NCBI GenBank assembly: GCA_946894095.1
Contig: OX335658.1
Location: 13,755,001-13,819,000 of the forward strand
Source: Incurvaria masculella
Taxonomy: Eukaryota > Arthropoda > Insecta > Lepidoptera > Incurvariidae
Direction of reading: 5' to 3'
DNA length: 64,000 nucleotides
Shown here: positions 4,751 to 40,200 of the stretch, piece after piece
Layout: every line of letters begins with the position of its first letter
How positions within the stretch are numbered: the stretch's first letter is position 1
The notes under the pieces: generated by a model
Database searches by the model: none
What the model saw: only the letters and a program-made list of their open reading frames with translations
What the model was told of the DNA's origin: nothing
Made by a program: the position numbers and the translations under genes

Positions 4751-5132
4751 AAAACCGGCCAAGTGCGAGTCGGACTCGCACACGAAGGGTTCCGTACCAT
4801 CGTAAAAAATGTATACAAAAAAATCACGTATTTTGTATAGGGACCCCTTTAATTTTAATTATTTCTTAATCTTACCTATTTGTTGTTATAGCGGCAAAAT
4901 AAATACACACTCTGTGAAAATTTCAGCTGTCTATCTGTTACGGTTACTGAGATACAGCCCTGTGACAGACGGACAGACGGACGGACGGACGGACGGACGG
5001 ACGGACGGACGGACGGACGGACGGACGGAAGGACGGACGGACGGAAGGACGGACGGACGGAAGGACGGACGGACGGATAGCGGAGGCTTAGTAATAGGGT
5101 TCCGTTTTCACCCTTTGGGTACGGAACCCTAA
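4751..5132 (+). repeat. Dispersed GGCCAAGTGCGAGTCGG element with expanded GACG microsatellite
   Basis: Full copy whose internal microsatellite, about 4964-5085, has grown to some 27 tetranucleotide units, with interspersed gaagg variants. Other copies have only three to six units. Confidence 0.85.
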
Positions 5133-9794: not shown

Positions 9795-10259
9795 TTACTG
9801 AACTTTGTCAGAAAACTTGGCCATTCTGTGATGCACTCTGAGCAACGCCTTCTCAAAATCATTCAAAAGAGGATAAACGCTAGCTTCCTCGGAATTTAAA
9901 ACCACTTCTTTCACATTATCTGGTGTTACTTCATCTACAACATTGTCAATTTGGTTATTTAGAATATTTTGAATGTTTTTATTGTCAGGTTCAATTTCCG
10001 TTAAAGTGTTCATGTTGAGTGGTATATTGCTCATTAGGTCTGTTATTTCTGATCCAAAATTATAGTTGGTTTGATGATGGCTTCCGTAGAGATTATTTTG
10101 ATCTTGATAAACATCGTGTTGCCGTTGCATGCTAGCTATATTGTGGTGGTATTGATCGTTATATATCCTTGGGCCGTTTTTCATATGGTCTGGCATCTGT
10201 ACAGTCCCATGAAGAACCAGGGTAAAAGCTCCAACATAACCAGCATTGCCTTTGCTGAC
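9795..10259 (-). CDS. PC1/3-like terminal exon: end of P domain and C-terminal tail
   Basis: 154 codons plus TAA, phase 0, acceptor aatttgtccacag. Opens [19 protein letters not shown], the last P-domain strand, then [15 protein letters not shown]. The remaining roughly 130 residues are rich in Asn, Gln, His, Asp and Glu, with no Cys-rich repeat and no membrane segment, as expected for a soluble granule enzyme rather than furin. It ends [18 protein letters not shown], a plausible amphipathic helix like the granule-sorting helix at the PC1/3 C terminus (inference). Confidence 0.93.
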   Translation of the reverse strand, partial: VSKGNAGYVGAFTLVLHGTVQMPDHMKNGPRIYNDQYHHNIASMQRQHDVYQDQNNLYGSHHQTNYNFGSEITDLMSNIPLNMNTLTEIEPDNKNIQNILNNQIDNVVDEVTPDNVKEVVLNSEEASVYPLLNDFEKALLRVHHRMAKFSDKVQ

Positions 10260-13200
10260 CTGTGGACAAATTACCAGCCTAAATAAAAAGTTGATGATCC
10301 TTTCATTATTTATCTAGTGTTTACCTACTTGAACAATCGAACTTAGAATTCTTACTAATAAATATTGTATAAAGGCTGCATATCTATAGATGAGGATTAG
10401 ATACGTTCCAAAACCATCTCGTAAAATTAATCCTATATATGGTCAGGGGGCCCATTCAGGTAAGAGTGAGTTCGAATTCGTCGCTAAATATAAACTCACT
10501 TTTTTAAGTAGAAGTTCATGTTTCCACAATTCTTGAACATGATTATAGTTAGGTAAAAATCTGTTGGTTGGAAGTATAAATAATAGTTCCGTTATTTAAA
10601 TAATCATATATTTACCAGCTAATTTTAGGTTAACTCACTCCCGAGCTCGAACTCACTTTTGCTTGAATCCAGATCTAACTAACAAACTTTTGAAAATTTG
10701 TCAAATAAATGTCAACTGTACTGTCATGAATGACACAGTGCATCTTTTATGTAAAATAACTGATCATGGGCCGCCCTCTTTTTGAATGCAAAAAATTCAT
10801 GACATGAATAAAGATGAGCACTGTTACCAGTTGCATAAAGATATGCATAGAAGTTGGCTATATCTGGTCTATTTTCTAAAAATGTGCTGTGCCTCGTATA
10901 TAAAAGCGTATACAGATATCACATTGTTTTAGTAAGGCTTTAAGTATATATCTTTAAATTATATTTTAACCCATCAACTGAGTAGTCTAAATTTAATTTC
11001 AAAACAGATTATTGAAATATTATTACAGTAGGTGAAACATTGACCACGGTATTGGAACTCAGACGGTACCCACTGTCGAGGTGTCCAAATCTATCTATCT
11101 TAAACGACGGCACGCAAAAGCCACGGGACTGCTCGGCCCACATGGCAAACGAGGACAGCTCCCAGTTCACAAACCCTGCTGTCGAGGTCGAGTGTACCTT
11201 ATTTTGCATGTACCGCTCTCCTCACGTAACGACCGGGACACCCGCTAGTTTGCAGACCCTGCTGTCGAGGTGTTCACATGGTGTACCTGATATTCCGGGG
11301 CCTCTCTCCCGACCTGGTGAACTAGAACAGCCGCCATTTCACGAACCCCAACCCAGATGCTGCGCCTCATCTTGAACGACGGATGGCGCACCACAAGCCG
11401 CGGGCCTTCTGTCCGCACGTGGCGACCAAAGACAGCAACGAACCCTCTTATCGAGGTGTCTCTGTACCTTATCATGGGCGACTAAAAGCCATAAGCCGCG
11501 GGGCCGCTCTCCCCACGTGGCTACCGAGGTCAGCTGCCAGTTCGAGAGCCCTTCTTTCGAGGTGTCCAGATAGTGTAACTTATCTTAGACGACTGCAAAA
11601 GCACGAAACCAGTTGACAAATCCTGCTGCCGAGGTGTCCAGTAGTAGTACCTTATCTTGGACGAATGCACGCCACAAGCCGCGGGGCCGCTCTCCCCACG
11701 TGGCGACCGAGGATAGCCGCCAGTTGACGAACCCTGCTGCCGAGGTGTCCAGTGGTAGTACCTCATCTTGGACGACCGCACGCCACAAGCCGCGGGGCCG
11801 CTCTCCCCACGTGGCGACCGAGGATAGCCGCCAGTTGACGAACCCTGCTGCCGAGGTGTCCAGTGGTAGTACCTTATCTTGGACGACCGCACGCCACAAG
11901 CCGCGGGTCCGCTCTCCCCACGTGGCGACCGAAGATAGCCGCCAGTTGACGAACCCTGCTGCCGAGGTGTCCAGTGGTAGTACCTTATCTTGGACGAATG
12001 CACGCCACAAGCCGCGGGGCAGATCTCCCCACGTGGCGACCGAGGATAGCCGCCAGTTGACGAACCCTGCTGCCGAGGTGTCCAGTGGTAGTATCTTATC
12101 TTGGACGACTGCACGCCACAAGCCGCGGGGCCGCTCTCCCCACGTGGCGACCGAGGATAGCCGCCAGTTGACGAACCCTGCTGCCGAGGTATCCAGTGGT
12201 AGTACCTTATCTTGGACGACCGCACGCCACAAGCCGCGGGTCCGCTCTCCCCACGTGGCGACCGAAGATAGCCGCCAGTTGACGAACCCTGCTGCCGAGG
12301 TGTCCAGTGGTAGTACCTTATCTTGGACGAATGCACGCCACAAGCCGCGGGGCAGATCTCCCCACGTGGCGACCGAGGATAGCCGCCAGTTGACGAACCC
12401 TGCTGCCGAGGTGTCCAGTGGTAGTACCTCATCTTGGACGACCGCACGCCACAAGCCGCGGGTCCGCTCTCCCCACGTGGCGACCGAAGATAGCCGCCAG
12501 TTGACGAACCCTGCTGCCGAGGTGTCCAGTGGTAGTACCTTATCTTGGATGAATGCACGCCACAAGCCGCGGGGCCGCTCTCCCCACGTGGCGACCGAGG
12601 ATAGCCGCCAGTTGACGAACCCTGCTGCCGAGGTGTCCAGTGGTAGTACCTCATCTTGGACGACCGCACGCCACAAGCCGCGGGGCCGCTCTCCCCACGT
12701 GGCGACCGAGGATAGCCGCCAGTTGACGAACCCTGCTGCCGAGGTGTCCAGTGGTAGTACCTTATCTTGGACGACCGCACGCCACAAGCCGCGGGTCCGC
12801 TCTCCCCACGTGGCGACCGAAGATAGCCGCCAGTTGACGAACCCTGCTGCCAAGGTGTCCAGTGGTAGTAGCTTATCTTGGACGAATGCACGCCACAAGC
12901 CGCGGGGCAGATCTCCCCACGTGGCGACCGAGGATAGCCGCCAGTTGACGAACCCTGCTGCCGAGGTGTCCAGTGGTAGTATCTTATCTTGGACGACTGC
13001 ACGCCACAAGCCGCGGGGCCGCTCTCCCCACGTGGCGATCGAGGATAGCCGCCAGTTGACGAACCCTGCTGCCGAGGTATCCAGTGGTAGTACCTTATCT
13101 TGGACGACCGCACGCCACAAGCCGCGGGTCCGCTCTCCCCACGTGGCGACCGAAGATAGCCGCCAGTTGACGAACCCTGCTGCCGAGGTGTCCAGTGGTA

Positions 13201-16200
13201 GTATCTTATCTTGGACGACTGCACGCCACAAGCCGCGGGGCCGCTCTCCCCACGTGGCGACCGAGGATAGCCGCCAGTTGACGAACCCTGCTGCCGAGGT
13301 ATCCAGTGGTAGTACCTTATCTTGGACGACCGCACGCCACAAGCCGCGGGTCCGCTCTCCCCACGTGGCGACCGAAGATAGCCGCCAGTTGACGAACCCT
13401 GCTGCCGAGGTGTCCAGTGGTAGTATCTTATCTTGGACGACTGCACGCCACAAGCCGCGGGGCCGCTCTCCCCACGTGGCGACCGAGGATAGCCGCCAGT
13501 TGACGAACCCTGCTGCCGAGGTATCCAGTGGTAGTACCTTATCTTGGACGACCGCACGCCACAAGCCGCGGGTCCGCTCTCCCCACGTGGCGACCGAGGA
13601 TAGCCGCCAGTTGACGAACCCTGCTGCCGAGGTGTCCAGTGGTAGTACCTCATCTTGGACGACCGCACGCCACAAGCCGCGGGGCCGCTCTCCCCACGTG
13701 GCGACCGAGGATAGCCGCCAGTTGACGAACCCTGCTGCCGAGGTGTCCAGTGGTAGTACCTTATCTTGGACGACCGCACGCCACAAGCCGCGGGTCCGCT
13801 CTCCCCACGTGGCGACCGAAGATAGCCGCCAGTTGACGAACCCTGCTGCCGAGGTGTCCAGTGGTAGTACCTTATCTTGGACGAATGCACGCCACAAGCC
13901 GCGGGGCCGCTCTCCCCACGTGGCGACCGAGGATAGCCGCCAGTTGACGAACCCTGCTGCCGAGGTGTCCAGTGGTAGTACCTTATCTTGGACGACCGCA
14001 CGCCACAAGCCGCGGGTCCGCTCTCCCCACGTGGCGACCGAAGATAGCCGCCAGTTGACGAACCCTGCTGCCGAGGTGTCCAGTGGTAGTACCTTATCTT
14101 GGACGAATGCACGCCACAAGCCGCGGGGCAGATCTCCCCACGTGGCGACCGAGGATAGCCGCCAGTTGACGAACCCTGCTGCCGAGGTGTCCAGTGGTAG
14201 TATCTTATCTTGGACGACTGCACGCCACAAGCCGCGGGGCCGCTCTCCCCACGTGGCGACCGAGGATAGCCGCCAGTTGACGAACCCTGCTGCCGAGGTA
14301 TCCAGTGGTAGTACCTTATCTTGGACGACCGCACGCCACAAGCCGCGGGTCCGCTCTCCCCACGTGGCGACCGAAGATAGCCGCCAGTTGACGAACCCTG
14401 CTGCCGAGGTGTCCAGTGGTAGTACCTTATCTTGGACGAATGCACGCCACAAGCCGCGGGGCAGATCTCCCCACGTGTCGACCGAGGATAGCCGCCAGTT
14501 GACGAACCCTGCTGCCGAGGTGTCCAGTGGTAGTATCTTATCTTGGACGACTGCACGCCACAAGCCGCGGGGCCGCTCTCCCCACGTGGCGACCGAGGAT
14601 AGCCGCCAGTTGACGAACCCTGCTGCCGAGGTATCCAGTGGTAGTACCTTATCTTGGACGACCGCACGCCACAAGCCGCGGGGCCGCTCTCCCCACGTGG
14701 TGACCGAGGATAGCCGCCAGTTGACGAAACCTGCTGCCGAGGTGTCCAGTGGTAGTACCTTATCTTGGACGACCGCACGCCACAAGCCGCGGGGCCGCTC
14801 TCCCCACGTGGCGACCGAGGATAGCCGCCAGTTGACGAACCCTGCTGCCGAGGTGTCCAGTGGTAGTACCTTATCTTGGACGACCGCACGCCACAAGCCG
14901 CGGGTCCGCTCTCCCCACGTGGCGACCGAAGATAGCCGCCAGTTGACGAACCCTGCTGCCGAGGTGTCCAGTGGTAGTACCTTATCTTGGACGAATGCAC
15001 GCCACAAGCCGCGGGGCAGATCTCCCCACGTGGCGACCGAGGATAGCCGCCAGTTGACGAACCCTGCTGCCGAGGTGTCCAGTGGTAGTATCTTATCTTG
15101 GACGACTTGCACGCCACAAGCCGCGGGGCCGCTCTCCCCACGTGGCGACCGAGGATAGCCGCCAGTTGACGAACCCTGCTGCCGAGGTATCCAGTGGTAG
15201 TACCTTATCTTGGACGACCGCACGCCACAAGCCGCGGGGCCGCTCTCCCCACGTGGCGACCGAGGATAGCCGCCAGTTGACGAAACCTGCTGCCGAGGTG
15301 TCCAGTGGTAGTACCTTGTCTTGGACGACCGCATGCCACAAGCCGCGGGGCCGCTCTCTCCACGTGGCGACCGAGGATAGCCGCCAGTTGACGAACCCTG
15401 CTGCCGAGGTGTCCAGTGGTAGTACCTTATCTTGGACGACTGGACGCTCGACTGGACGCCACAAGCCGCGGGGCCGCTCTCCCCACGTGGCGACCGAGGA
15501 TAGCCGCTAGTTGACAAAACCTGCTGCCGAGGTGACCAGTGGTAGTACCTTATCTTGGACGACCGCACGCCACAAGCCGCGGGGCCGCTCTCCCCACGTG
15601 GCGACCGAGGATAGCCGCCAGTTGACGAAACCTGCTGCCGAGGTGTCCAGTGGTAGTACCTTATCTTGGACGACCGCATGCCACAAGCCGCGGGGCCGCT
15701 CTCTCCACGTGGCGACCGAGGATAGCCGCCAGTTGATGAAACCTGCTGCCGAGGTGTCCAGTGGTAGTACCTTATCTTGGACGACCGCATGCCACAAGCC
15801 GCGGGGCCGCTCTCCCCACGTGGCGACCGAGGATAGCCGCCAGTTGACGAACCCTGCTGCCGAGGTGTCCAGTGGTAGTACCTTATCTTGGACGACCGCA
15901 CGCCACAAGCCGCGGGTCCGCTCTCCCCACGTGGCGACCGAAGATAGCCGCCAGTTGACGAACCCTGCTGCCGAGGTGTCCAGTGGTAGTACCTTATCTT
16001 GGACGAATGCACGCCACAAGCCGCGGGGCAGATCTCCCCACGTGGCGACCGAGGATAGCCGCCAGTTGACGAACCCTGCTGCCGAGGTGTCCAGTGGTAG
16101 TATCTTATCTTGGACGACTGCACGCCACAAGCCGCGGGGCCGCTCTCCCCACGTGGCGACCGAGGATAGCCGCCAGTTGACGAACCCTGCTGCCGAGGTA

Positions 16201-19200
16201 TCCAGTGGTAGTACCTTATCTTGGACGACCGCACGCCACAAGCCGCGGGGCCGCTCTCCCCACGTGGCGACCGAGGATAGCCGCCAGTTGACGAAACCTG
16301 CTGCCGAGGTGTCCAGTGGTAGTACCTTGTCTTGGACGACCGCATGCCACAAGCCGCGGGGCCGCTCTCTCCACGTGGCGACCGAGGATAGCCGCCAGTT
16401 GACGAACCCTGCTGCCGAGGTGTCCAGTGGTAGTACCTTATCTTGGACGACTGGACGCTCGACTGGACGCCACAAGCCGCGGGGCCGCTCTCCCCACGTG
16501 GCGACCGAGGATAGCCGCTAGTTGACAAAACCTGCTGCCGAGGTGACCAGTGGTAGTACCTTATCTTGGACGACCGCACGCCACAAGCCGCGGGGCCGCT
16601 CTCCCCACGTGGCGACCGAGGATAGCCGCCAGTTGACGAAACCTGCTGCCGAGGTGTCCAGTGGTAGTACCTTATCTTGGACGACCGCATGCCACAAGCC
16701 GCGGGGCCGCTCTCTCCACGTGGCGACCGAGGATAGCCGCCAGTTGACGAAACCTGCTGCCGAGGTGTCCAGTGGTAGTACCTTATCTTGGACGACCGCA
16801 TGCCACAAGCCGCGGGGCCGCTCTCCCCACGTGGCGACCGAGGATAGCCGCCAGTTGACGAACCCTGCTGCCGAGGTGTCCAGTGGTAGTACCTTATCTT
16901 GGACGACTGCACGCCACAAGCCGCGGGGCCGCTCGCCCCACGTGGCGACCGAGGATAGCCGCCAGTCGACGAACCCTGCTGCCGAGGTGTCCAGTGGTAG
17001 TACCTTATCTTGGACGACTGGACGCTCGACTGGACGCCACAAGCCGCGGGGCCGCTCTCCCCACGTGGCGACCGAGGATAGCCGCTAGTTGACAAAACCT
17101 GCTGCCGAGGTGACCAGTGGTAGTACCTTATCTTGGACGACTGCACGCCACAAGCCGCGGGGCCGCTCGCCCCACGTGGCGACCGAGGATAGCCGCCAGT
17201 CGACGAACCCTGCTGCCGAGGTGTCCAGTGGTAGTACCTTATCTTGGACGACTGGACGCTCGACTGGACGCCACAAGCCGCGGGGCCGCTCTCCCCACGT
17301 GGCGACCGAGGATAGCCGCTAGTTGACAAAACCTGCTGCCGAGGTGACCAGTGGTAGTACCTTATCTTGGACGACTGCACGCCACAAGCCGCGGGGCCGC
17401 TCGCCCCACGTGGCGACCGAGGATAGCCGCCAGTTGACGAACCCTGCTGCCGAGGTGTCCAGTGGTAGTACCTTATCTTGGACGACTGGACGCTCGACTG
17501 GACGCCACAAGCCGCGGGGCCGCTCGCCCCACGTGGCGACCGAGGATAGCCGCTAGTTGACAAAACCTGCTGCCGAGGTGTCCAGTGGTAGTACCTTATC
17601 TTGGACGACCGCATGCCACAAGCCGCGGGGCCGCTCTCCCCACGTGGCGACCGAGGATAGCCGCCAGTTGACGAACCCTGCTGCCGAGGTGTCCAGTGGT
17701 AGTACCTTATCTTGGACGACTGCACGCCACAAGCCGCGGGGCCGCTCGCCCCACGTGGCGACCGAGGATAGCCGCCAGTCGACGAACCCTGCTGCCGAGG
17801 TGTCCAGTGGTAGTACCTTATCTTGGACGACTGGACGCTCGACTGGACGCCACAAGCCGCGGGGCCGCTCGCCCCACGTGGCGACCGAGGATAGCCGCTA
17901 GTTGACAAAACCTGCTGCCGAGGTGACCAGTGGTAGTACCTTATCTTGGACGACTGCACGCCACAAGCCGCGGGGCCGCTCGCCCCACGTGGCGACCGAG
18001 GATAGCCGCCAGTTGACGAACCCTGCTGCCGAGGTGTCCAGTGGTAGTACCTTATCTTGGACGACTGAACGCTCGACTGGACGCCACAAGCCGCGGGGCC
18101 GCTCTCCCCACGTGGCGACCGAGGATCGCCGCTATTTGACAAAACCTGCTGCCGAGGTGACCAGTGGTAGTACCTTATCTTGGACGACTGCACGCCACAA
18201 GCCGCGGGGCCGCTCGCCCCACGTGGCGACCGAGGATAGCCGCTAGTTGACAAAACCTGCTGCCGAGGTGACCAGTGGTAGTACCTTATCTTGGACGACT
18301 GCACGCCACAAGCCGCGGGGCCGCTCGCCCCACGTGGCGACCGAGGATAGCCGCTATTTGACAAAACCTGCTGCCGAGGTGACCAGTGGTAGTACCTTAT
18401 CTTGGACGACTGCACGCCACAAGCCGCGGGGCCGCTCGCCCCACGTGGCAACCGAGGATAGCCGCCAGTTGACGAACCCTGCTGCCGAGGTGTCCAGTGG
18501 TAGTACCTTATCTTGGACGACTGGACGCTCGACTGGACGCCACAAGCCGCGGGGCCGCTCTCCCCACGTGGCGACCGAGGATCGCCGCTATTTGACAAAA
18601 CCTGCTGCCGAGGTGACCAGTGGTAGTACCTTATCTTGGACGACTGCACGCCACAAGCCGCGGGGCCGCTCGCCCCACGTGGCGACCGAGGATAGCCGCT
18701 AGTTGACAAAACCTGCTGCCGAGGTGACCAGTGGTAGTACCTTATCTTGGACGACTGCACGCCACAAGCCGCGGGGCCGCTCGCCCCACGTGGCGACCGA
18801 GGATAGCCGCCAGTCGACGAACCCTGCTGCCGAGGTGTCCAGTGGTAGTACCTTATCTTGGACGACTGGACGCTCGACTGGACGCCACAAGCCGCGGGGC
18901 CGCTCTCCCCACGTGGCGACCGAGGATAGCCGCTATTTGACAAAACCTGCTGCCGAGGTGACCAGTGGTAGTACCTTATCTTGGACGACTGCACGCCACA
19001 AGCCGCGGGGCCGCTCGCCCCACGTGGCGACCGAGGATAGCCGCTAGTTGACAAAACCTGCTGCCGAGGTGACCAGTGGTAGTACCTTATCTTGGACGAC
19101 TGCACGCCACAAGCCGCGGGGCCGCTCGCCCCACGTGGCGACCGAGGATAGCCGCTATTTGACAAAACCTGCTGCCGAGGTGACCAGTGGTAGTACCTTA

Positions 19201-22200
19201 TCTTGGACGACTGCACGCCACAAGCCGCGGGGCCGCTCGCCCCACGTGGCGACCGAGGATAGCCGCCAGTTGACGAACCCTGCTGCCGAGGTATCCAGTG
19301 GTAGTACCTTATCTTGGACGACTGCACGCCACAAGCCGCGGGGCCGCTCGCCCCACGTGGCGACCGAGGATAGCCGCCAGTCGACGAACCCTGCTGCCGA
19401 GGTGTCCAGTGGTAGTACCTTATCTTGGACGACTGGACGCTCGACTGGACGCCACAAGCCGCGGGGCCGCTCTCCCCACGTGGCGACCGAGGATAGCCGC
19501 TAGTTGACAAAACCTGCTGCCGAGGTGACCAGTGGTAGTACCTTATCTTGGACGACTGCACGCCACAAGCCGCGGGGCCGCTCGCCCCACGTGGCGACCG
19601 AGGATAGCCGCCAGTCGACGAACCCTGCTGCCGAGGTGTCCAGTGGTAGTACCTTATCTTGGACGACTGGACGCTCGACTGGACGCCACAAGCCGCGGGG
19701 CCGCTCTCCCCACGTGGCGACCGAGGATCGCCGCTATTTGACAAAACCTGCTGCCGAGGTGACCAGTGGTAGTACCTTATCTTGGACGACTGCACGCCAC
19801 AAGCCGCGGGGCCGCTCGCCCCACGTGGCGACCGAGGATAGCCGCTAGTTGACGAACCCTGCTGCCGAGGTGTCCAGTGGTAGTACCTTATCTTGGACGA
19901 CTGCACGCCACAAGCCGCGGGGCCGCTCGCCCCACGTGGCGACCGAGGATAGCCGCTAGTTGACGAACCCTGCTGCCGAGGTGTCCAGTGGTAGTACCTT
20001 ATCTTGGACGACTGGACGCTCGACTGGACGCCACAAGCCGCGGGGCCGCTCTCCCCACGTGGCGACCGAGGATCGCCGCTATTTGACAAAACCTGCTGCC
20101 GAGGTGACCAGTGGTAGTACCTTATCTTGGACGACTGCACGCCACAAGCCGCGGGGCCGCTCGCCCCACGTGGCGACCGAGGATAGCCGCTAGTTGACAA
20201 AACCTGCTGCCGAGGTGTCCAGTGGTAGTACCTTATCTTGGACGACTGCACGCCACAAGCCGCGGGGCCGCTCGCCCCACGTGGCGACCGAGGATAGCCG
20301 CCAGTCGACGAACCCTGCTGCCGAGGTGTCCAGTGGTAGTACCTTATCTTGGACGACTGCACGCCACAAGCCGCGGGGCCGCTCGCCCCACGTGGCGACC
20401 GAGGATAGCCGCCAGTCGACGAACCCTGCTGCCGAGGTGTCTAGCAAGCGTGGGCTGAGAAGGTCCACGCTGGTTCCTGTGACATCCACGGCGATGAATT
20501 GGCATGCGAACAAAATTTGGTCCGTCCATGTAACTCATCGATTAGTATCCAAAAGGTCTGAGAAATGCTTGCATAAATGTTAATACAATTCTTGTAATGC
20601 TATAATATTTTTTTTAGTATAGTATTTGACTTTCATTTTTAAACATATGTTACTTAATAACAACACACTCTTCTTAATAGCCATATGATGAGAAAACTGG
20701 ATTCTCCAAATAAACCTTGTTAAAAAATCTCCTCCATGGTCACCGACTTTGTGTCCGAACGTTCCATCCTGTACATCTCCTTTTCTCCGAAATAGATTTA
20801 AAATATTCATGCTATACACCCGAAAAAAAGCTTAGAGAAGTATATTTTTTAGAAAACGAATTTCAACGAAGCAAAAATTCATTTTTAGAAGAAATGTAAC
20901 AACCGGCCAAGTGCGGGTCGGACTCGCTTACGAAGGGTTCAGTACCAACGTACAAGATTTACCCCAAAAAAACACGTTATTTGTATGAGGAATTTTTATT
21001 ATTTTATAATTTTACCTATTTCTTGTTATAGCGGCAAAATAAATACATAATCTGTGAAAATTTGAGCTTCCTACCTCTTACGATTCATGAGATACAGCCC
21101 TTAGACAGACGGACGGACGGACGGACAGCGGAGGCTTAGTTCCGTTTTCACCCTTTGGGTACGGAACCCTAAAAAGTTTTTTTTCGCCGTTAGATAATCC
21201 GACTAGAGTATTTTTGTCACTGTCTTTGCAACAAATTATCAGCTCACTGATGGGAGAAGATTACGATGGGTCCCAAAATATCATTATTTCAATATAATGT
21301 AATAATATTTTCTTTAATAGCCCAGCATAAATAAACCTTACTATGTATTAAATATTTATGAATAGTAATCTCATAAGACTAAACCCCCACACAAATAAAG
21401 CCTGCAGCCTTGCAAATGCTTAACTGTGCATAATAAAACATACCTCTAACACGTATGTCTTATTCTATGGACATTTTTGTTAACTTTAAAAATATTTTCT
21501 TTTCTCACTAAGCCCCGGTTGCACGAAGAGACAGCCGAGTTAATCAATGTTCAAACACGTCACTTTTAGTGATCCGCATAGAGTTCCTTCCATACTGTCC
21601 ACACAGAGTGACGTGTTTGATCATACTTTGACGATGATTTTGACTTTTTGTTCTTTCGTGCACTCGGCCCTAAATGTTCTCATCAATCATTCTGTGTTAT
21701 TAAGTCGCACATGGCCTAAGAGAGAGACAACATTTAAATCAGAACCGAAATCCATAAAAGATCACGACAATAAGTATTTTATTTCTTGGGCTAATATCGA
21801 CCCAGCTTGCGTCGTTCGGGACTAATCGAGCCACAAATCGAGTCACAGCCCACGGACGGGCAAACGAAGTGGGGCTAGCACGCGAGATAAATCGATACTT
21901 GGTTGCGGATACCAGGCGACCATACCTTGTGGAGAGAGTAGCTGTACTTGGAGCGCTCCGCGCCGCGAATAGCGGACATTGCTCACCAGCTCAGCGTGTT
22001 CCAAATACTCAACGGCGCATTCGTAAGCGGGAAACAGCAGATGGACGGCAATGTCAGACTCGAATGTAGAGTTCAATAAACTGGCAACACAAAATCAAAT
22101 GACAACGCGTCATTTTTATCTAAGTTTTTATGCAAAGTTTGTAGGAAAGAATGCTAGCAAAATCACCAGTATACATATGCATGCACTCATGAAGCGAACA

Positions 22201-25200
22201 CCATTTCAAGTCACAGATAAAAGTGAAACGCTTTCGCATGACGTCATCAAACATCAAATGTTATGTTGTGTCAATGCACTCTAATTAGAATTATTAGAAA
22301 GGGACAATACTAGGGTGACTCGTGGTTGTCAGGTTGTAGGAGTAAACAGTTATGGCACATAGAAACTAACAGTAGGCTTACGGTTTTTACTCAACGATTT
22401 ACTTAGTTGGCTCTATTTTTACTAACAATATAATAATAACCATCGGAATTACAGTTAGATTCACTGATTTATTTTTCAGTCATAGCAGATCATTTTACTT
22501 TTGACATAAGCGTCACCTACTATGAAGTTTAATACTTGTGCAAGTTGTGACGTGCAAGACACTTTTGATATTGATATGTGAAATCCATTAAAGCTTCGTC
22601 ATAAAAATAAATTCGATTGATACCAGAAATCGAATCAGTAACGCATTAGGACATTACATACTCATTTAATAGAACTCGAGCCGTCAAAAGTAAAAAAATA
22701 AAGGTTGTACATTGGGTTGGACAGACTTAGTACATGTTTTGTCCAAAACACACCACTCACGGCAATGCGTCAACGTGACAGATGGTTTTATCCGGCACTG
22801 TAGTCCAGTTGAAAGCAGCGGCTACCAGGGCAGCAGCATTCAGCACGCCAAATCCGAACCTCACGTCGAAACGCAATCCCGCGCTGCAATCATTCCAGAA
22901 ATAGGTATATATCAAGTCCATCGACGATCAAGCCGTTTAGTTTGATTCACATTTTACATATCTGGTGCATATTGCTTACATACATAGCCCAGATGATTGT
23001 GCCTGATGGCATGTGTCAACAATACATAAAAGCAACAGCCTAACCCTACTTATGACGTCGTTCATTACGTTCACGTCTGAAAAACGCCCGAATTAATTTT
23101 AGGGTTTATTTATCGCCGTGCGTTGCGGTCTCAGCATATATTCTTCCACGCCTCGGGCCTCGCCCGAGCCTTTGTCCCGTACTCCACCCGGCGTCCATCA
23201 CCCGAAGGTAGGCACGTGAAAAGGCAGGCTAAAGACCGAAATGACAGGTGTCAAGCGAGGCACGGACGGTTGACATCGGGTAGTGTAATTGTCGTCGAAT
23301 CGGGGCACGATGGATTGTGAAGGGGCTGAGGTTGTCCTATGGCAACTATTTAATATATTATATGGGTTGCGTAAGTTTGATCACAGTTTGTTATTTGTTA
23401 TGTTATTTACCTTATCTTTGGTTTCTTTAATGCCCCTGCTGCTCCCAAATATCTCACTGATCGGATGGAACCGCTCGGTTATCATGGCCTACCCCTCAGA
23501 TACACAGTTAATTTGTTTCTCGCTATTCCGGTACATAATTATTCTTACACGGATTATTTTACTTAATTTGACTTTCAGCTACATCTATATTTGAAGCAAC
23601 GTAATCAGATTTTGAAAATTGTCGTTAGAAATGAGATAACGGTGATATCGTTTCCATTAAATACATAAAATTATCGATTATTTTACTGTTCACCAGCTTT
23701 CACTTATTGTTCGCACATCCTCTTCTCTTCATGTATTTAAGAACGGCCCGTAAGGTATGCTCCCCATACCTATGTAGTTTACTAATCATTTGGAAACGGC
23801 TATTCCAATTGAATTGATGTTTAATATATAATATCAGGTAACAAATATCTGTGTCTGCATGCTTTTGTTTTTTTTTTAAATCCAAACCGAATGAAATGAA
23901 AGCAAAAAGAAAATCTTCATCCGAATTTTGTTTTCTCTGTGGTTTGACCCAGAATACATTTACCGAAAAAACAAAGGCATGCAGACACAGATATTTGTAG
24001 CCTAATATTAGATACCAAATATCAAGTATGTTGGAATAGTGGTTTTCAAATTATTAGTAAACTACGTTTGTATGGGAGGCGAAATTTTCTGATGCTTACG
24101 GGGCCGACCTTAAGGAGTGCCTCTTCCTTACTTCTTACCTTGCATAATTTTATCAGTAGTTATTTGCTTGTCAATCTGATCCTACCATCGATGGCTCCTA
24201 CTGATTCAAGAGACACATTGTTTCTTTTGTGCATTGATTATTAATTTATATATTTATACATATGTATAAATATCTGTGAGTCTATTAAATCAACATTAGT
24301 TAAGGCATCAAAACCCATTATTGCCGCTTCGAGAATGTGTCACCTAAACTAGCCTTACGTTAGGGAAGGGATTATTAGGGAAGTGTCCTTTAAGTCGCAA
24401 AACCGAAAATCGATATTTCATCCACTTTCTGACTACTTAGAGCTATAAAAATTTTGTGAGATGAGCATGAGTTTAAATAAATAAACCCTTTAAAAAAGTA
24501 ATTTCATATTTGGTTTCATCATGATTTGACAATGCCATAACATACTTATGAGAGCCCGGATTTATATACGTTACTTGTCCTTGGCTTAGCCAAAGTATAG
24601 CTTCCGCTGTCAAAATCGACCTTTGTTCCATATATTTTACGTAAAACTGACAGTCGGAAGACATACTTTGGCTTAGCCGAGTACTAGTAATGTCTATGAA
24701 TCTCAGCATAACATCTGCTCACGCCTCGCGCGCCCTGGTACTTCGTACCTGTTGGTGAGCCAGCCGCTGCCGCCTGCGAGCGGCGCTTGCTCCGATGTCC
24801 AAGCTAGCAAGTGCTGCACATCGCGCCAACTCAACTCCGGACTGAACATACAAACGACCACATTTTAGATGGCGCCACGGTCGTTCGTAGCAATTTGTGC
24901 TGCTTATTCTGGGGTGATGCCATCGATATAATCTTTGGTATGTCGATGGGTGATGCAGCCACCAAAGAGAGTCGTTACATCACTTTACGTAGGTAACAGA
25001 AAGTCACACGGATTAAGAATGTACCAAGTACGCGCAGAAATTGTAAACTCACTTTGCTTGCAGCGCCAAGGCTATGACGCCGGCGGCAAGAGGGGCAGCG
25101 GCTGAAGTGCCAGTGTGTTTCAGCGTGCAGCTGTTTCTCACGTCCGTTGTAGCCTGTAAATACTCATTGATTAGAACATTAGGAAAAGCACAAAGAACAT

Positions 25201-28200
25201 TTTATTGGGCGGATGTTCTGGATGTTCTTACGATCTTCTGGTCGCCGTAGGCCCCGCTGGAATATGCGGCTGCCATGGTAGAGGGGCAGGTCTCGCCATA
25301 CCACGGGAAACGGCCGTGCTGCGAAGCGCTGCCTATAGACACTGTATAGATGCTTGATGAGTACCTGGTACATTAGAAGCTCGGTTACTTTGCATTGTTG
25401 AAAGTAAAAGTAAAAAAAAAACAATTTGGAACATTTTTCACCACTTCCACATTATGTTCTTCTGTGAGACTAACCAGAGGTACGGGCTAACCGTTCGGCT
25501 AAAATCTCAGCCTTTTATGCCTCAACACGGTAAAAATAGCTAATCTTAAAATCTACGAATGGTATTGCATATCGATACAAGAAAATGCGGGAAAACATGT
25601 TCAGGGGGTTACATTGTGCGGGGCGGGGGTAATTTACTTACAATACGCGATGAGTTTAATATTACTTAAGATTACTTTGTAAACAGCTCGGATCAGGGTT
25701 TTAAAAACATCGATTTGAAGGTATACATAGTTTACGAAATGTATTTAGGGCGTTTTTTTTTATTCGTGCAACATTAGCTTTTGCCGCCACGGACGCACGC
25801 GTCCTTGCTGCAACAACGCCGTGTTTACACCGTTTAACACGAACAGCTACCAGGCGGACATGGGTTCGTCACAAATACATGACTATACCACCGAATAATA
25901 TACCACTATCTGTGACATGATTCCACGGAGGAGGCATGATTCCATCATTTAGAATTGCTAGTCTGAGTTCTCACCAACATTGGCGTTTACGTAACTTCGA
26001 AGTTACGTAAAAACATGAAACCCCGTAGATTTTTTTACAAATTATTCTGTGGTTTTACTTCTTCAAGCTGTCAAAGTCAAACTCGGACTTCCGATTTGTA
26101 TGAAAACGCGGAGCCAGCGTAAACCGCAACGTCGACGTATTTACGCCGACGGTGAGTAAGCTGTCAAATCAAACTCGGACTCGCAAATGTTAGTTTGCTT
26201 AAGGCGCTAGGACTGGCCAACTACTCGCGCCATACAAATGCACTTTTTAACAAATGTAATAATATGTAGTGAAACGCTTCAGAAAATCCAAATAGAACTC
26301 CAGACTGATAATGGATTGTTAATATTTTTTGATTCCATCATTTATTTAAATAATAATAAAAATAAAAAAGTTGATTTTTCTCATTAGAAATCTGAAAGTA
26401 ATTCGATTAATAGATATAAGCAAAAACAGCATATATGCATAAACAAAACATTCCATTTGCTATTAGATTTCTACATTTAGTCAAAAAAGTTCGGAAATGG
26501 ACACCGTTTCCGCAATGTATTTTGTATAGAAAAAGGTAACATACATTAACGAAAATAGGTTGATTAATAGACAAGGAATCATATATTGTAAGAATGACAC
26601 TTATAATCGTCAGACTTAGTTAGTTAACTTGGGGTGCCTCGTCTAACTTTGCGATTTGGCTAGTACCAGGGCCTTAACGCCCACTGCGCACGCTCCTCAA
26701 TTTCTCCATACATTTGAAAACGCCAGTCTAGGTGACAACTGGGACTACAGGCTCTGGACATTTTCAGGGTGCCGTAGTCAAACGTCAAAACGAGACCCTT
26801 ATAAATTTGTATTGTCCGTCCGTCCGCCCGTGCGTCTGTCCGTTTGTCAGTGAGGTACGGCTGCTTCTTTGTCGTCTCCGAGTAATATAGCACTATTTCT
26901 TATTCTATGCTTCCTTGAAGCATGAGCATTATCTTACTGTAATACCATGGTGGTGAAGAAATACATTATTTACCTCGGCGACAGCGATGTATCATACATC
27001 GCTGTCTCTCAAATTTATAAAACGTGGATGCCATTCACATTTCGTTTATCATTATTTTGGTTACCCATCACAGTTGCAGTTGTCGTATCTGCTTCCCCCA
27101 TTTCCGTTTGCCCAGACGAAGATCACTCCTTTGCCATTTCGCCCCTGAAACATACACATATACATCTTCACGCTGCTTTCACAGAGGGGTAGGGAAATAT
27201 GACAAAGCGCCACCCGGTGCGATCACAACACACCTCTTTCTCTTCATTCACATACATACATCTTTTCATACGTGCCCTACAATTAGGGGTGCTACGTACC
27301 TGACCCGTGTACCTGTCCTTTACGAATAGTTGTATCAATTTGGTCACGCACGGAGCGCATCACACTCGGCGTCACCGTAGGCATAAGCTCACTTCTGCTC
27401 TGTAAATTTGTACCGTCATTCTTTCGTCCCATATGTCTAATCCATCTTAAGAGGGTATTATCACCTGATTGCATTCAGTCCCATTAGGGCGTAAGTAAAA
27501 CAACATTTTTATTTAAAAACAAGTACAACGAAATTCTATAATCAAAAAAGTATATTTGTGGATTGATGGTCTGGCCAAACTGTAAGACCCCGATGCTTTT
27601 TTTTGCTCAAATGGGGCAAATATGCATAAATATTCATAAAAAAGTTTGAAAAATAATGGGAGTCTCAGATAAAGACAAAGAGATACATTAACATTCAAAT
27701 TACACACACTCCCTTCCACACAAATACTCCCTCACATATCCTCAAACCTCCCGGTGACTAACCTGAGTCACCGGTGACTCAGGTTAGTCACCGGTGACTC
27801 GCAGGTTATAACCTCATGAGTAGGACCACTGATAAGGCACTTGATTCCTATGATAATGCAGTGTGTTGGGCTCATATCATGACGGTTACCACTATTTCTC
27901 TTCAGTGGTGACCACACATGTCCAGTGACATAGGTAAAAGGTGAACGCGAATCGTCCATTATTTTACTCATAGAATGACTACTCGCGTGAACATTCTCAA
28001 ACGAGTCATTGTAGTTTTAAAACTTTCTAATTATTCGAATTAGAGCGAGATTACATTATACATATTAATGACAAAGGTAATGTCATGCGAAATGGACATC
28101 AAAGTGATTCACTTTTATCCGCTCCGTGTGAATTATATGTGCAGCAGGAGCATTGTGATATGATTTTTTTCAAATTTTCAAGTTCATAATATTAACATAT

Positions 28201-31200
28201 TAATAAATAAATAACTGTCAAACTAACGGACATGGAGTGACATGGTGATATACTAGATATTTTTTTTTGTTTGAAACAGTTCAGTGCATACTTTTGTAAC
28301 ACCTCTCTCCAATGCAAGCTGCGCAAGTCGCCCAGGGCCCTCTACCGTCCGGCCGTCGTCGTTCGGTCCCCAAGATGCGCTGTAAATGTCCACCTTGTCC
28401 CAAGCGAAACCTGTGGGGCAACCATCACGAAACATTGGTGCTGTTGGTTCATGTACTTTATAACAGATGGCGTCTGCTCGAAAACATTTTCGTTTACTTC
28501 TATGCTATGTTCGCCTGGTAAAATCGACGTTCGAATAGACGCTGTGATTTCTTTCTTGTGCTTCGCAAGCACCCAAAAAGTTGAATGATAAAAGTGTTGC
28601 CATCTCAGAGTGTTCTGATGCTTCACGTAGTTTGGTAAACCATCAATATAGACAGATCTGACAACTCTGCAAGGTTGTTATTTTATATTTTGTGTTTCAT
28701 ACATGGAAAAAATATGTCCAACTTAATTGATTACCTATGTAACGAACGACATTTTCGGAGTGATAACTTTCGATTCTTTGCATATAAATCTAGCCAAAAT
28801 AGCAGGATAATGGGCAAAAGTTTGCAAAAAATATATATTTTGGGGACAGACATCTGTGGTGCTAAGTAGGATTATATTTACCAACATTCGTCGCACTATG
28901 CTTGGTCTATGGTCGATATAGAAATGCCAGCCAACAAAATTCTTCTAGTATTCTGTGGAGTGCATAATCTGTGGATAGTGTTATAGTTGAGGTTTTAATA
29001 GATTTATCTTCTTTCTTCTTGGTGCGAAAAATAAGGACAGATGTATTTTAATTTTAAAATTATCACTTACCAGAGTTTGTGCACAGCTTATGATATCCTG
29101 GTAAGTGCATCTTCGCTTAGTCGCCACGCGCAATCACATGGCGGTGGTTTTGGTTGGATCGATTGTTTCAGTTTTGTCATAGGTTGTCTGCGATCCTAGT
29201 GCATTCTTGGATTTATTCTACTTTGTTCCTGTCGGTTGAGTTGTTATCGATGACATTTTCGTGATGGTACCCTTGTAATTTTGTCCGCTCGTATCGACGT
29301 AATGACACCAATTTGTGATGCGATGTTTTTTTGGGCACAGAAGATAAAATAAAGATACAAAACATCAGCGGTTCTACTCCGGAAGCGAACACGATAAATT
29401 CTTACAAGGAATGAATGAAACTGTCATTACCATTTTTTTATATGGAGTTTGATAGCTACTCCGTAGGTATTCGTTGTGAGATTCGTGTTCGCTTCATGAA
29501 GTTGTGCAGGGTACAACAAGGGTGTGCGATTCAAATAAGAATAGGACGGGGCTCGTGACTGACTTCACTCGAATTCGCGAAGGAAAGTACGCGTCCAAAC
29601 CGCGGCAAAGTACTGAAGTTTGTGAAGTGAAGTGAGGGTTTTATCAGTTTGAAATTCAAAATGGCGGTGATCCTATCCTATTCTTATTTGAATCGCATTG
29701 TACAAACTATAGCTAGCACAGACTGGCGACGCCGGTTTGTAGCGAGATATTTTTTGCTGAGTTGTCGCCGGTAAATACAACCCAAACAATCGTATTCATA
29801 GTGAACCTGTCAAAACTTAATATGGGATTAGCACCGGACTAACCATACAAAAACAGGTTTAGTCCGAGGTATTAAAATGTGTCCGCCCACTCTGAATCTG
29901 GCGTAAAGAGACTAAAGCCACTTGCTTAAAGTATTTAATGAAACCATAGATTAACTACTTGCGACCATCCTCCATGCTTGCGACCCAAAGGCAAAACTAT
30001 TTTGTTGCTACACCCGCGCATAGTATATACCTACATAATAGGGGTCTAAAATGCCACAATTTGAATTCTCCTGTAGATGTATTCAGGGATGTTTGGCTAA
30101 AACCATACAGCAGTATTAAAATTGGGGACATAAAATACGCATTTCTGTCCGTAGTAAGGGCCGAGTGCACGAAAGGACATAAAATTAAAATCAACGTCAA
30201 CGTACGATCAAACACATCACTTTGTGTGGACAGTATGAAAGGAACTCTATACGGATAACTAAAAGTGACGTGTTTGCACATTGATTAACTCGGCCATTTC
30301 TTCGTGCAACCGGAGCTAAGGGCCGAGTGCACGAAAGCACAAAAAATCAAAATCAACGTCAAAGTATGATCAAACACGTCACTTTGTGTGGACAGTATGG
30401 AAGGAACTCTATGCGGTTCACTAAAAGTGACGTGTTTGAACATTCAGCCGTTTCATCGTGCAACCGGGGCTAAGTCGCATATTGTATCGTTAGTACGGAG
30501 ATAACCCCGTAGTCGAAGTCACCTCTGCATACAAACGGCCGATTTTATTGCACCGCTTTAGGCTCATGCGATCCTAGTGGAGTCGTATTTTCTGGTCTCC
30601 AGCCGGTCGCCAGTTGGGCGCAAAAACAACACTGAAATTGAATTACTTACTGGCTGCATGCCTTCCGACTGTCAATTTTGAGATGAAATGTACGGAACAA
30701 ATGTCAAATTTGACAGTCAGAAGCTATTGGCTAAGCCAAGTAAGAGTAAGGTTTATGAATCTCAGCATAATTTATACAGTTGTATTCAGAGACAACCTGT
30801 CAAATCTTTAGTACGTGATTAGCACCGGACTAACCATACAAACACCGGTCCAGTCTTGCGTATTAAAGTTAGTACGCTCACTCTGAATACGGCAGCTGAT
30901 CTCACGACAGTATTCAGAGTGGGCAGACTAACTTTAGTACGCGTATTAAGGTCGGACTAAACCGTTTTTTGTATGGTTAGTCCGGTGCTAATCCCGTTCT
31001 AAGTTTTGACAGGTTCATTCTGAAAACTGTTTGACTTGGTTGATAACAAGAAATAATTAAGTCTCCAATTTGTCTCTATATTCGGTGCATGAGTAAACGT
31101 CCGTACTACCATAGAATAAATATGCTTCGTACTACGGTACTGATGGCTGATGATTGATTGATTTTGATGGAATGTCCTTTCGTGCACTCACTTCACGTCA

Positions 31201-37200: not shown

Positions 37201-40200
37201 TATAAACAAACAATCAAACCTTTCCTCTTTATATAATAGTATAGAAGTATAGATATAGATTAGTAAGTATAGAAGTATAGATATATTATAACAGACACAA
37301 TGAAATAAATGTGAAACTATTAAGAAAAAAAAGAAAGAATATTGAGGAATTGTAAATTTAAAATAACATTTTGTTATTGCCACTTTAACATTGAAATACC
37401 TGATTGTAGAATTTAATGGCTAAAAATTATCAATTCGGAGTTAAGTAAATATACTTTTTCGTAGGTACTAAACAGGTACGCCGCTTATTCCAAGGAATAT
37501 GATATGTATGTATGTATGTATAATTGACCGTGAAGCAAGGACACATTAATTTTAGAAAGAGCCCAGTAAAAATAATTACTATACTGCCACGCTGGACCCG
37601 AACCAGCAAAAGCAGCAAAGCATACCATTCGTGGGTATTGCGTCTACCAATTTCGCCATTATTTGAATATAATACCACAGAATAACTTTACTAATAGTGA
37701 TAATACGTTAAATAAAATTATTGAAATACTAGCTGCGTTACCCGGCTCCGCTCGGGTTAGTGTCGGCTAAATTATCTCATGGATAAAAAGTAGCCCACAT
37801 GACTGGTCCAAAATAGGGTCAAACTGGTCCAGGACAATGTATCCATGTACCAAATTTAATCAAGATCGTTCGAGCCGAAATAGCATGATTTAATGAGAAA
37901 CATCCAATAATTCCCATTTAGAGCTTCGTTGACGTTTGGTGGCTATTTAAAAAAAAACATTTGCCGCGAGAACCTTTCTGCACTTTCACTGCTACATTGC
38001 TTACCTAGTAAGTAACGTGTAACGTAGGTAAGTTTTGCGTGGACTCCAACCCACAGCCAGCCTCAACATCGAAAACAGTAACCCATCTCGAACCTGACTG
38101 ATCCCAGAGATGCTATACATTGATAAAATACGCATATAAATCAGGTAAGTGGTTCGCATGTTATAAGACTTTAAGACTCACTACTTACCCTTCTGGTAAT
38201 GAAGCGTTATATTATGTAATCTATAAGTTTTTAGTAGAATCAGGCTAGACGTAGATACAATGCACATCTAAATCGAGTAATTGGTTCTCAAGGATTTTAT
38301 TCTGTTGGTCGCTCCTCCGGCGATTTAGCGTGATGCCAAGTAGTCCTAAAGTTGCAGGAAATACCAAGCCGTACTTCAGTAAAAGTAAGCGCTGCCGCCG
38401 CAAAGCCGAGCCGTGCATAGCATTGCAGTTTGTATGACAGCCCCATCTTAGCGTAAGCGGAACTGAATTCTATTTAGCCAATCCTAATTCCCGGGTAGTT
38501 AAATGTACATGTACTAAGTTTTACAAATCGCTAGTGCCTTGAAAATTCGCCAAACGGACACCAAACAGTCACGACGTCTGCCCTCCCCCCGCCGCCGCTC
38601 CCCGCCACCGCCCCCGGCTCCTCTCCCCCTAGTGTGAAGTAGCGCTACCGGCATCGTTTTCGCAGCCCCGTGAAAGTTCTAAAGCCCATGGGCACATAAA
38701 TTGTAGCCTATGTGTTATTCTGATGTATAAGCTATATTATTGTAAAGTTTCATTAGAATCCATTCAGTAGTTTTTACGTGAAAGAGTAACAAACATCCAT
38801 CCATCCATCCATCCATCCATCCATCCATCCATCCATCCATCCATCCATCCATCCATCCATTATTACAAACTTTCCCCTTTATAATATTTATTAGATTAGA
38901 TAACACGTAGTCACAACTAAAACTGGTAAATGGGGTCAAAGAATCGATGTAATCTAAAACTAGGTCAAAGTGATGATAAAACAGTGCTATTTTTTTGCGT
39001 TAGTTTTAGTTTCAGTTACTAGTACCTATTTACTACTACAGCCAGCAAGATTGCTAGAGGGGCCAGGATATTATGTTGTTCCAGTAAGTTTCACAACGAC
39101 CAACCATTAGGTTTTGGAAATGGGATTGCTATTCCCACGTGCGATACGCACGCCGTCAGCGGATAATTCACAACCTAGGTTATCTCAGAATAATAATGAT
39201 TTACTCTAAGGTTACTAGCGAATTCCGTGGTAACCGATATTCCGAGGGGGTTTGCCTCGGTGCTTCTTGTGACGAGTGTCACGTTCTTCGTCACATTGAT
39301 GAAGTACTATTTTCGCGCTTTTCTCACCTCCCGCAAAGAAGTTGAAGGATGTCAGAGAAGGTGGTTTAAAAAAAACTCGATTCTCAGCCCACCGTGCGAC
39401 GGCGAGTACCAGGGCGACACGGCGGCGCAGGAAGTGATTGCGGCGAGCACGTACCCAACGCCTCTCCCTCGACGCGGTCGTTGACTCGCCCGTCGAGCAT
39501 GCGCACTCCGCCGATGCGCGCGCCCCACGCCGCCCCCACGCCGCACTTGCCATTGTTAGCTGTCATGGCGATCTGTAATTTAATGGTAATTTATGACATG
39601 AATCTAATCAAATCTTAGAACAATGACAACCAAAATCAGAACTTTTTGAAGTAACGTTCGATCGAGAAGATATTCTGTCATTTTTAACCGACTTCAAAAA
39701 AGGAGGAGGTTATCAATTCGTCGGAATCTTTTTTTTTAAATATTCTTCATTGATGAAATCAGAAAAGTTAAAAACTGACAGTCGTATTCAGAGTGAACCT
39801 GTCAAGACTTAGTACGGGATTAGAACCGGACTGATCGTAAGCCGCGTGTTAAAGTTAGTCCTCCCTCCCACTCTGAATACGACAGGTCTATTTTTGGAAG
39901 CAGAAAAAGCAGTGCAGAAAAAAGGAGATAATCTGTATCTATTCACAAATTTTCCTATTCCTCTTTAAACTCTTGAGTTTCTGATAAATACTTCAATATA
40001 TCTTGCAGCGGCTCGTAACCTAGTGGAAAATTATCTTCAACAAACGTCAAATTAGTAGGATTAAATTTATTTGTGCTCACAAATGGAAAAAAAAATTCTA
40101 TGTGCATTTCGTTACCAATGCCAGCTGCTCCATGGTTCGTAATTCATCTAAAACTGTAGGTCCCCTTCCCCTAATAGGCGGTAGGGTTTAAGCCCGCCCG

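What the first reader, a model, noticed from the sequence alone, without database searches (positions are those of the whole stretch)
11606..20476. An 8.7-kb satellite-like array built from a proprotein convertase P-domain exon and its splice donor
The 111-bp unit, present about 78 times, is the last 99 bp of the PC1/3-like P-domain exon (20343-20441) plus the first 12 bp of the following intron. Seen directly: the exon reads [20 protein letters not shown]..., the units read [14 protein letters not shown]...VQDK then VLPL, and the period is 3 x 37. GFxxWxxxSVxTWGExPxGxW is established P-domain sequence. Inference: a segment straddling an exon-intron boundary was duplicated and expanded by unequal exchange inside a conserved gene. 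I know of no described minisatellite that is a multiplied exon end with its 5' splice site.
Basis: partly seen in the sequence, partly recalled or inferred. Interest (0 to 1): 0.95.

Follow-up and report, generated by a model that had tools for sequence, protein, structure and literature searches.

The report
Repeated exon end filling an intron
In a moth-like insect's gene for a hormone-processing enzyme, the end of one exon and its splice signal have been copied about 78 times into the next intron, and similar exon-edge arrays turn up in other genes of the same genome, which makes it a natural test of how cells choose a splice site and how introns grow.

Summary
A 111-bp unit (99 bp of exon end plus 12 bp of intron with the 5' splice site) is repeated in 78 clean copies at 11609-20441, with six decayed copies beyond. 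It lies in intron 12 of a 13-exon, minus-strand lepidopteran PC1/3 (neuroendocrine convertase 1) gene whose modelled exons join without a stop. The array looks non-coding: 21 of 78 units hold an in-frame stop and unit variants fit a no-constraint expectation. The functional exon end is unit 1 and is identical over 111 bases to seven others, up to 3.5 kb away, which implies recent exchange or copying between exon and array.
It is not a one-off: nine other exon edges in this genome sit in tandem arrays of exon edge plus splice-site sequence. Most likely, junction-straddling duplications are the ones that splicing hides from selection, and unequal exchange expands them. Boundary repeats are described in human paralogues (PMC2812944) and a two-copy case in potato (PMC4974935), so I call this a new variant of a known kind. 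Splicing is inferred; no RNA or second genome was available.

The parts
20343..20476 (-). exon 12 of the PC1/3-like gene (P-domain); its last 99 bp (20441-20343) belong to unit 1 of the array
   Evidence: acceptor ...TGTCACAG|GAACC, donor AAG|GTACTACC; no gap against the 14 lepidopteran proteins aligned across the exon 12/13 join
20331..20342 (-). 12 bp of intron (GTACTACCACTG) that belong to the unit, including the 5' splice site
11609..20441 (-). tandem array, 78 clean units of 111 or 123 bp (one of 112)
   Evidence: TRF; unit census
11000..11608 (-). decayed distal fringe: units 79-84 (unit 79 starts at 11638), 50-79% identical to the exon unit
10260..20342 (-). intron 12, 10,083 bp, that holds the array
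   Evidence: splice sites at both ends
9795..10259 (-). last exon (13): P-domain end and C-terminal tail, with stop codon
   Evidence: [16 protein letters not shown] aligns with lepidopteran PC1/3
21926..22080 (-). exon 11 (first part of the P-domain)
22761..22883 (-). exon 10
24749..24841 (-). exon 9
25053..25153 (-). exon 8 (HTGTSAAAP, active-site serine region; motif recalled)
25232..25364 (-). exon 7
27065..27144 (-). exon 6
28292..28410 (-). exon 5
39455..39572 (-). exon 4
40546..40647 (-). exon 3 (HGTRCAGE, active-site histidine; motif recalled)
58773..58919 (-). exon 2 (VLDDG, active-site aspartate; motif recalled)
59589..59861 (-). exon 1 of the model (end of propeptide and start of catalytic domain); earlier exons not located

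Best explanation
An intronic minisatellite seeded by a tandem duplication across the exon 12 / intron 12 junction of a lepidopteran PC1/3 gene. Because each copy carries the 5' splice site but the real 3' splice site lies outside the unit, the copy next to that acceptor remains the exon and every further copy falls into the intron, so the duplication is nearly silent. Unequal exchange then expanded it to 78 units. The functional exon end is the terminal unit: selection keeps it intact while it exchanges sequence with other units, and units at the far end decay. Shown: anatomy, open gene model, lack of coding constraint on units, exon-array identity, decayed far end, recurrence at other exons. 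Inferred: first-donor use by exon definition, unequal exchange as the engine, near-neutrality.
For: Gene model of 13 exons with GT-AG introns, 680 aa without a stop; closest listed proteins are mostly lepidopteran, many named neuroendocrine convertase 1; Pfam S8 and P-domain over cut-off. 21 of 78 units have an in-frame stop, the first in unit 3. Of 28 variants in 77 units, 8 are synonymous, 19 non-synonymous, 1 stop (0.29/0.68/0.04) against 0.28/0.67/0.05 expected. Unit 1 is identical to units 2, 8, 10, 15, 24, 29, 31; these eight are the only ones of 77 with D at a residue where 62 have N, and N is also the state in 12 of 16 aligned homologues. Decayed units 80-84 carry K, I or T after DTS, unlike the exon's A; T (9 of 16) and K (4 of 16) are the usual homologue states there. 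GT kept in 69 of 78 units. In large introns the splice sites closest across the exon pair preferentially (PMC9225289, abstract read), which favours the first donor.
Against: No RNA data: donor choice is not shown. Within the 78 clean units mean distance from the exon unit is flat (4.6, 4.7, 4.7 changes by thirds), so a gradient rests on the decayed fringe and on identical units occurring only among units 1-31. Decayed unit 79 shares the exon's A. Two of 16 homologues (Amyelois, Schistocerca) also have D where the exon has D. Using donor 2 would add 37 residues in frame, so a longer isoform is possible. No related genome was available to date the array.
Confidence: 0.85

Rival explanations
1. 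The array is coding: one very long exon or many alternative in-frame donors that make a P-domain with extra 37-residue repeats.
For: The unit is 3 x 37 bp, the 12-bp insert keeps frame, and units 1-2 are open; donor 2 would add 37 aa in frame.
Against: 21 of 78 units have in-frame stops, first in unit 3; unit 47 has a 1-bp insert; variants show no coding constraint; other arrays in the genome have units not divisible by three.
Confidence: 0.05
2. Assembly artefact: a short repeat over-expanded by the assembler.
For: Tandem arrays are error-prone to assemble; no read data here.
Against: Units carry structured variants (12 units with a 12-bp insert, 9 with lost GT, a decayed fringe), and arrays of other unit lengths occur at exons of other genes. 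Exact copy number may still be wrong.
Confidence: 0.04
3. Selected function of the array itself, for example many 5' splice sites acting as U1-binding sites that protect the long intron from early polyadenylation, or as splicing decoys.
For: 69 of 78 clean units keep the GT; the GT-bearing 12-mer is present 68 times.
Against: Homogenisation alone would keep them; 9 units have lost the GT. No direct test was possible.
Confidence: 0.06

Closest known systems
Internal tandem repeats at exon-intron boundaries of human genes in segmental duplications (De Grassi and Ciccarelli 2009, PMC2812944; outline, sections 9 and 10 and passages read)
   Same: Tandem repeats lying at an exon-intron boundary, minisatellite-sized units, effect on gene structure
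   Different: On average 30-bp units repeated 4 times, found as differences between recent paralogues and checked against transcripts; here 78 units over 8.8 kb in one gene, with decayed copies, and recurrence at unrelated genes
Tandem duplication across the intron 1 / exon 2 boundary of a potato RdRp gene (PMC4974935; abstract read)
   Same: One duplication crosses a splice junction and part of it is spliced out
   Different: A single duplication on the acceptor side that gives a new intron; here an intron is filled by many donor-side copies
Tandem exon duplication / mutually exclusive exons (recalled category)
   Same: Copies of exon sequence in the adjacent intron
   Different: The real acceptor is outside the window unit and units carry stops, so copies are unlikely to act as separate exons
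Satellite DNA of Lepidoptera (search listing and abstract starts only)
   Same: Long homogeneous tandem array
   Different: Inside a gene, 8.8 kb, all returned matches in one array

Membership tests
Minisatellite / VNTR-like array | Head-to-tail array of tens-to-hundreds bp units at one locus | tested here: met
Minisatellite / VNTR-like array | Copy number varies between individuals | not testable with these tools
   one genome only
Tandem repeat at an exon-intron boundary (as in PMC2812944) | Repeat unit or array straddles a coding exon boundary | tested here: met
   unit = 99 bp exon + 12 bp intron
Tandem repeat at an exon-intron boundary (as in PMC2812944) | Transcripts show the repeat kept or spliced out | not testable with these tools
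   no RNA data
Satellite DNA proper | Large, multi-locus or heterochromatic arrays | tested here: not met
   82 returned matches, all within one 9-kb stretch; the search's counts are lower bounds; chromatin state not testable
Tandem exon duplication | Each copy has both splice sites and an open frame | tested here: not met
   the real acceptor (before 20476) lies outside the unit; 21 of 78 units have stops
Intron gain by AGGT tandem duplication | Intron newly created inside an ancestral exon | tested here: inconclusive
   no orthologous genomic DNA; a C19 paralogue has a P-domain exon ending nearby (...TWLLE|GTACGT)
PC1/3 (neuroendocrine convertase 1) | S8 catalytic domain and P-domain with closest matches to NEC1 orthologues | tested here: met
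PC1/3 (neuroendocrine convertase 1) | Signal peptide and complete propeptide | not tested
   first exons not located in the window

The most novel reading that the evidence does not exclude
This genome runs a recurrent, genome-wide process in which exon edges with their splice sites are tandemly amplified into introns. The functional exon acts as a selection-protected master copy at one end of each array, feeding and exchanging sequence with its intronic copies: an exon-anchored way of growing introns, and a route by which intronic copies can rewrite coding sequence.
Probability: 0.4. Interest if true: 0.85.

Novelty: new variant of a known kind. Interest (0 to 1): 0.72.

Why it matters
One locus offers 69 near-identical GT-bearing 5' splice sites in a row behind a single acceptor, so RNA reads alone would show how far exon definition holds. 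The exon and its spliced-out copies appear to have exchanged sequence, so a coding exon may be open to exchange with sequence that is not under selection. Recurrence on seven contigs of one genome suggests a source of intron growth and of hidden splice variation that annotation and short reads could miss.

Tried and rejected
Coding array: rejected on stops, a 1-bp insert and neutral variant ratio. Damage to the exon by its array: not seen; the 33 arrayed residues are 61% identical on average to 16 homologues, against 48% for residues 402-482 (exons 10-11) and 45% for the first 20 residues of exon 13. Species: in a tree of the window protein and 16 of the 120 listed homologues, the window gene falls outside a clade of Eumeta plus the other 13 lepidopterans (ultrafast bootstrap 82); species not named. 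Enrichment of arrays at exons: with whole-array random placement, 6 of 13 arrays overlap exon matches, 3.45 expected, P 0.06. After seeing that, I devised a second null with seed-sized placement, dropping one row that was the same array seen twice (L068): 6 of 12, 1.35 expected, P 0.0003; in the long loci alone 4 of 7, 0.40 expected, P 0.0002. I consider the second null fairer, but it was chosen after the first. The 10-kb loci around the C19 gene were chosen from a hit list that held array hits, a bias in favour. Kinases: 0 of 10 sampled exons lie in a TRF array; one of the 10 has decayed copies. Decay with distance from the exon is not general: copies decline in 3 of 9 other arrays (L043 99 to 90%, L044 99 to 89%, L049 95 then 85%); the other six do not (L047 92-96, L054 97-98, L067 98 and 98, L083 86 and 86, L084 73 then 77, L085 88, 91, 94). 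P450 and sugar-transporter scans were read as coordinates. Array function as U1 sponge: no test available. tRNA and Rfam scans of the window: nothing (the tRNA scan used the bacterial code setting). Papers: nine searches ran; in what they listed I saw no report of exon-edge arrays in Lepidoptera, but the library holds only open-licence papers and only listings were seen for nearly all.
Full report
WHAT IS THERE. The array is real. TRF reports 11609-20441, period 111, 78.3 copies. Cutting from the exon outward gives 78 clean units and six decayed ones that reach about 11000. Of the 78, 12 carry a 12-bp insert (123 bp), one a 1-bp insert, and 65 are 111 bp. The 12-mer GTACTACCACTG occurs 68 times in the window, all in the array and on one strand; the largest count in 100 shuffles is 0. 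All 82 matches of the unit that were returned from the 552-Mb genome fall in this one place; the tool warns that repeat counts are lower bounds.

THE GENE. On the minus strand I built a 13-exon model with GT-AG introns, from 59861 down to a stop at 9795, 680 residues without a stop. Pfam gives Peptidase_S8 and P_proprotein over cut-off. Of the 46 best rows of the homologue table, 41 are lepidopteran (many named neuroendocrine convertase 1, 53-68% identity over varying coverage), three are unnamed, one is a rotifer protein (first by E-value, 56% of the query aligned) and one a nematode protein (only the 7985 candidates sharing most words were scored). Signal peptide and early propeptide exons were not located. 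I aligned 16 of the 120 listed homologues (14 lepidopteran, 2 other insects). Across the exon 12 / exon 13 join there is no gap against the 14 lepidopterans (VVQDK|VSKGNAG against TVRDK|TNESNSG in Eumeta); the two other insects have one or two extra residues there. This supports the donor at 20342 and the acceptor before 10259. In the tree the window gene falls outside a clade of the 14 lepidopterans (ultrafast bootstrap 82).

THE UNIT LOOKS NON-CODING BEYOND THE FIRST COPY. The real acceptor lies outside the unit, so only the first copy has it in place. In-frame stops occur in 21 of 78 units, the first in unit 3; one of the 21 is due to the 1-bp insert. Over 77 units (the 112-bp unit was left out), 28 distinct variants in the 99 exon-derived columns are 8 synonymous, 19 non-synonymous and 1 stop, against 28%, 67% and 5% expected without constraint. 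So the open frames that run through parts of the array more likely reflect unit homogeneity than coding.

EXON AND ARRAY APPEAR TO HAVE EXCHANGED SEQUENCE. Unit 1, which contains the functional exon end, is identical in all 111 bases to units 2, 8, 10, 15, 24, 29 and 31. These eight are the only ones of 77 with D at the ninth residue; 62 have N and 7 have K. N is the state in 12 of 16 aligned homologues; two (Amyelois, Schistocerca) have D. A coding state thus sits in the exon and in seven scattered intronic copies; either the exon seeded them or one of them replaced the exon end. At the fourth residue (DTS-A) the clean units share A with the exon, as does decayed unit 79, whereas decayed units 80-84 have K, I or T; T (9 of 16) and K (4 of 16) are the usual homologue states. 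This is consistent with array and exon having changed together after the first copies were made. It does not separate homogenisation from renewed amplification out of the exon. Within the 78 clean units there is no distance gradient.

IT IS NOT A ONE-OFF. Searching the genome with the P-domain and S8 families led to other convertase genes, and two of these had arrays on exon edges: L043 6657-8365 (200 bp x 8.6, whole P-domain exon plus about 35 bp), L044 6811-8096 (149 bp x 8.6, S8 exon), L049 4397-4910 (187 bp x 2.7, S8 exon, later copies with stops) and L047 1235-1550 (53 bp x 6, last 11 bp of an S8 exon plus donor). ABC transporter exons, taken without regard to arrays, gave two of 19: L054 (239 bp x 7.2, exon end, donor and intron) and L067 (66 bp x 3.0, the mirror case: intron end, acceptor and exon start, the last copy being the exon). 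Of 10 kinase exons none lay in a TRF array and one had decayed copies. Of the 46 exon matches outside the window, 9 have a nearby copy of part of themselves and 6 of these lie in TRF arrays. The nine include two decayed cases (in one, L051, the copied part lies inside the match, not at its edge) and one short flank copy (L047 1-42); I left out a tenth exon (L048) whose only repeat was intronic. In the window gene it is 1 of 13 exons, the finding itself. Tandem-looking coordinates in the kinase and P450 hit tables pointed to three further places; all three were fetched and show repeated exon end plus donor-like sequence (L083 P450, L084 and L085 kinases). These three were chosen for looking tandem and are not part of the rate. 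Together with the window that is ten exon-edge arrays on C1, C5, C7, C15, C18, C19 and C20. Splice sites other than the window gene's are read from the sequence, without full gene models. Unit lengths 53, 66, 111, about 145, 149, 162, 166, 187, 200 and 239 show no rule of three. Copies decline away from the exon in 3 of the 9 other arrays (L043, L044, L049) and not in the other six; L054 and L083-L085 run past the stretch held.

HOW IT MOST LIKELY WORKS. A tandem duplication inside an exon changes the protein; one that crosses the donor leaves acceptor, exon and first donor intact and puts the extra copy in the intron. One that crosses the acceptor leaves the last copy intact. Splicing therefore hides junction-crossing duplications from selection, which predicts that units contain a splice site, that the true exon is at one end of the array (upstream for donor units, downstream for acceptor units), and that frame does not matter. 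On my reading of the sequences the ten arrays fit, as far as they are visible. In large introns, splice sites closest across the exon pair preferentially (PMC9225289, abstract), which predicts first-donor use here; this step is inferred. Expansion by unequal exchange is inferred from block-like periodicity (lowest mean distances at lags 8 and 14 in the distal part and at lags 9 and 7 in the proximal part). Why exons are hit is open: they are GC-rich (63% in the non-window matches, against 42% in the eight long loci). Arrays overlap exon matches in 6 of 13 cases with 3.45 expected (P 0.06) under a first null; under a second one, devised afterwards, it is 6 of 12 with 1.35 expected (P 0.0003).

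AGAINST THE STRONGER CLAIMS. There is no RNA, no second eukaryotic genome and no read data. The survey is 46 exon matches in a few families, some from loci chosen off a hit list that held array hits. The exon is not visibly damaged by its array: its 33 arrayed residues are better conserved than neighbouring stretches (61% against 48% and 45%). On checking, I lowered the probability of the novel case from 0.45 to 0.40, because decline with distance holds in only 3 of 9 other arrays and the favourable enrichment test was post hoc.

COMPARISON. Human internal tandem repeats at exon-intron boundaries (PMC2812944; outline, two sections and passages) are the closest described kind: on average 30-bp units repeated four times, variable between recent paralogues. 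A boundary duplication is described in potato (PMC4974935, abstract), and tandem duplication of exon sequence as a source of introns in Drosophila (PMC2891723, passages). I saw no report of long exon-edge arrays in Lepidoptera in the searches listed under Tried and rejected. Hence: new variant of a known kind, with a possible new genome-wide process behind it.

Noticed in passing
60088-61107 (+): Uninterrupted 340-aa mariner-type transposase frame (Transposase_1 and Mos1-type HTH), just beyond the first located exon of the convertase gene.
   Followed up: partly
49639-52635 (-): Uninterrupted 999-aa frame with DUF1759, probably from a BEL/Pao-type retroelement (recalled), inside intron 2 of the model.
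   Followed up: partly
L042 8819-9280 and L048 9435-9689: Minisatellites that start within about 20 bases after a P-domain exon's donor but show no copy of exon sequence.
   Followed up: partly
L045 and L046 (C18:281001-288000 and C18:3750001-3757000): Convertase genes (furin-2-like by their cysteine-rich repeats, recalled) in which much of the catalytic domain, the P-domain and the repeats lie in one open frame of 634 and 705 codons.
   Followed up: no
G000 P450 and sugar-transporter hits: Many of the scored P450 domains and the 9 scored sugar-transporter domains (of 313 candidates) span most of the family profile in a single reading frame, so these members look intronless over the domain.
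   Followed up: no
L051 2514-2813 and L076 29-523: Decayed copies of exon parts (71% and 75-80%) beside an S8 and a kinase exon: possible old exon arrays.
   Followed up: partly
4964-5077 and 38794-38860: Four-base repeats (GACG, 28.5 copies, and CATC, 16.8 copies).
   Followed up: no
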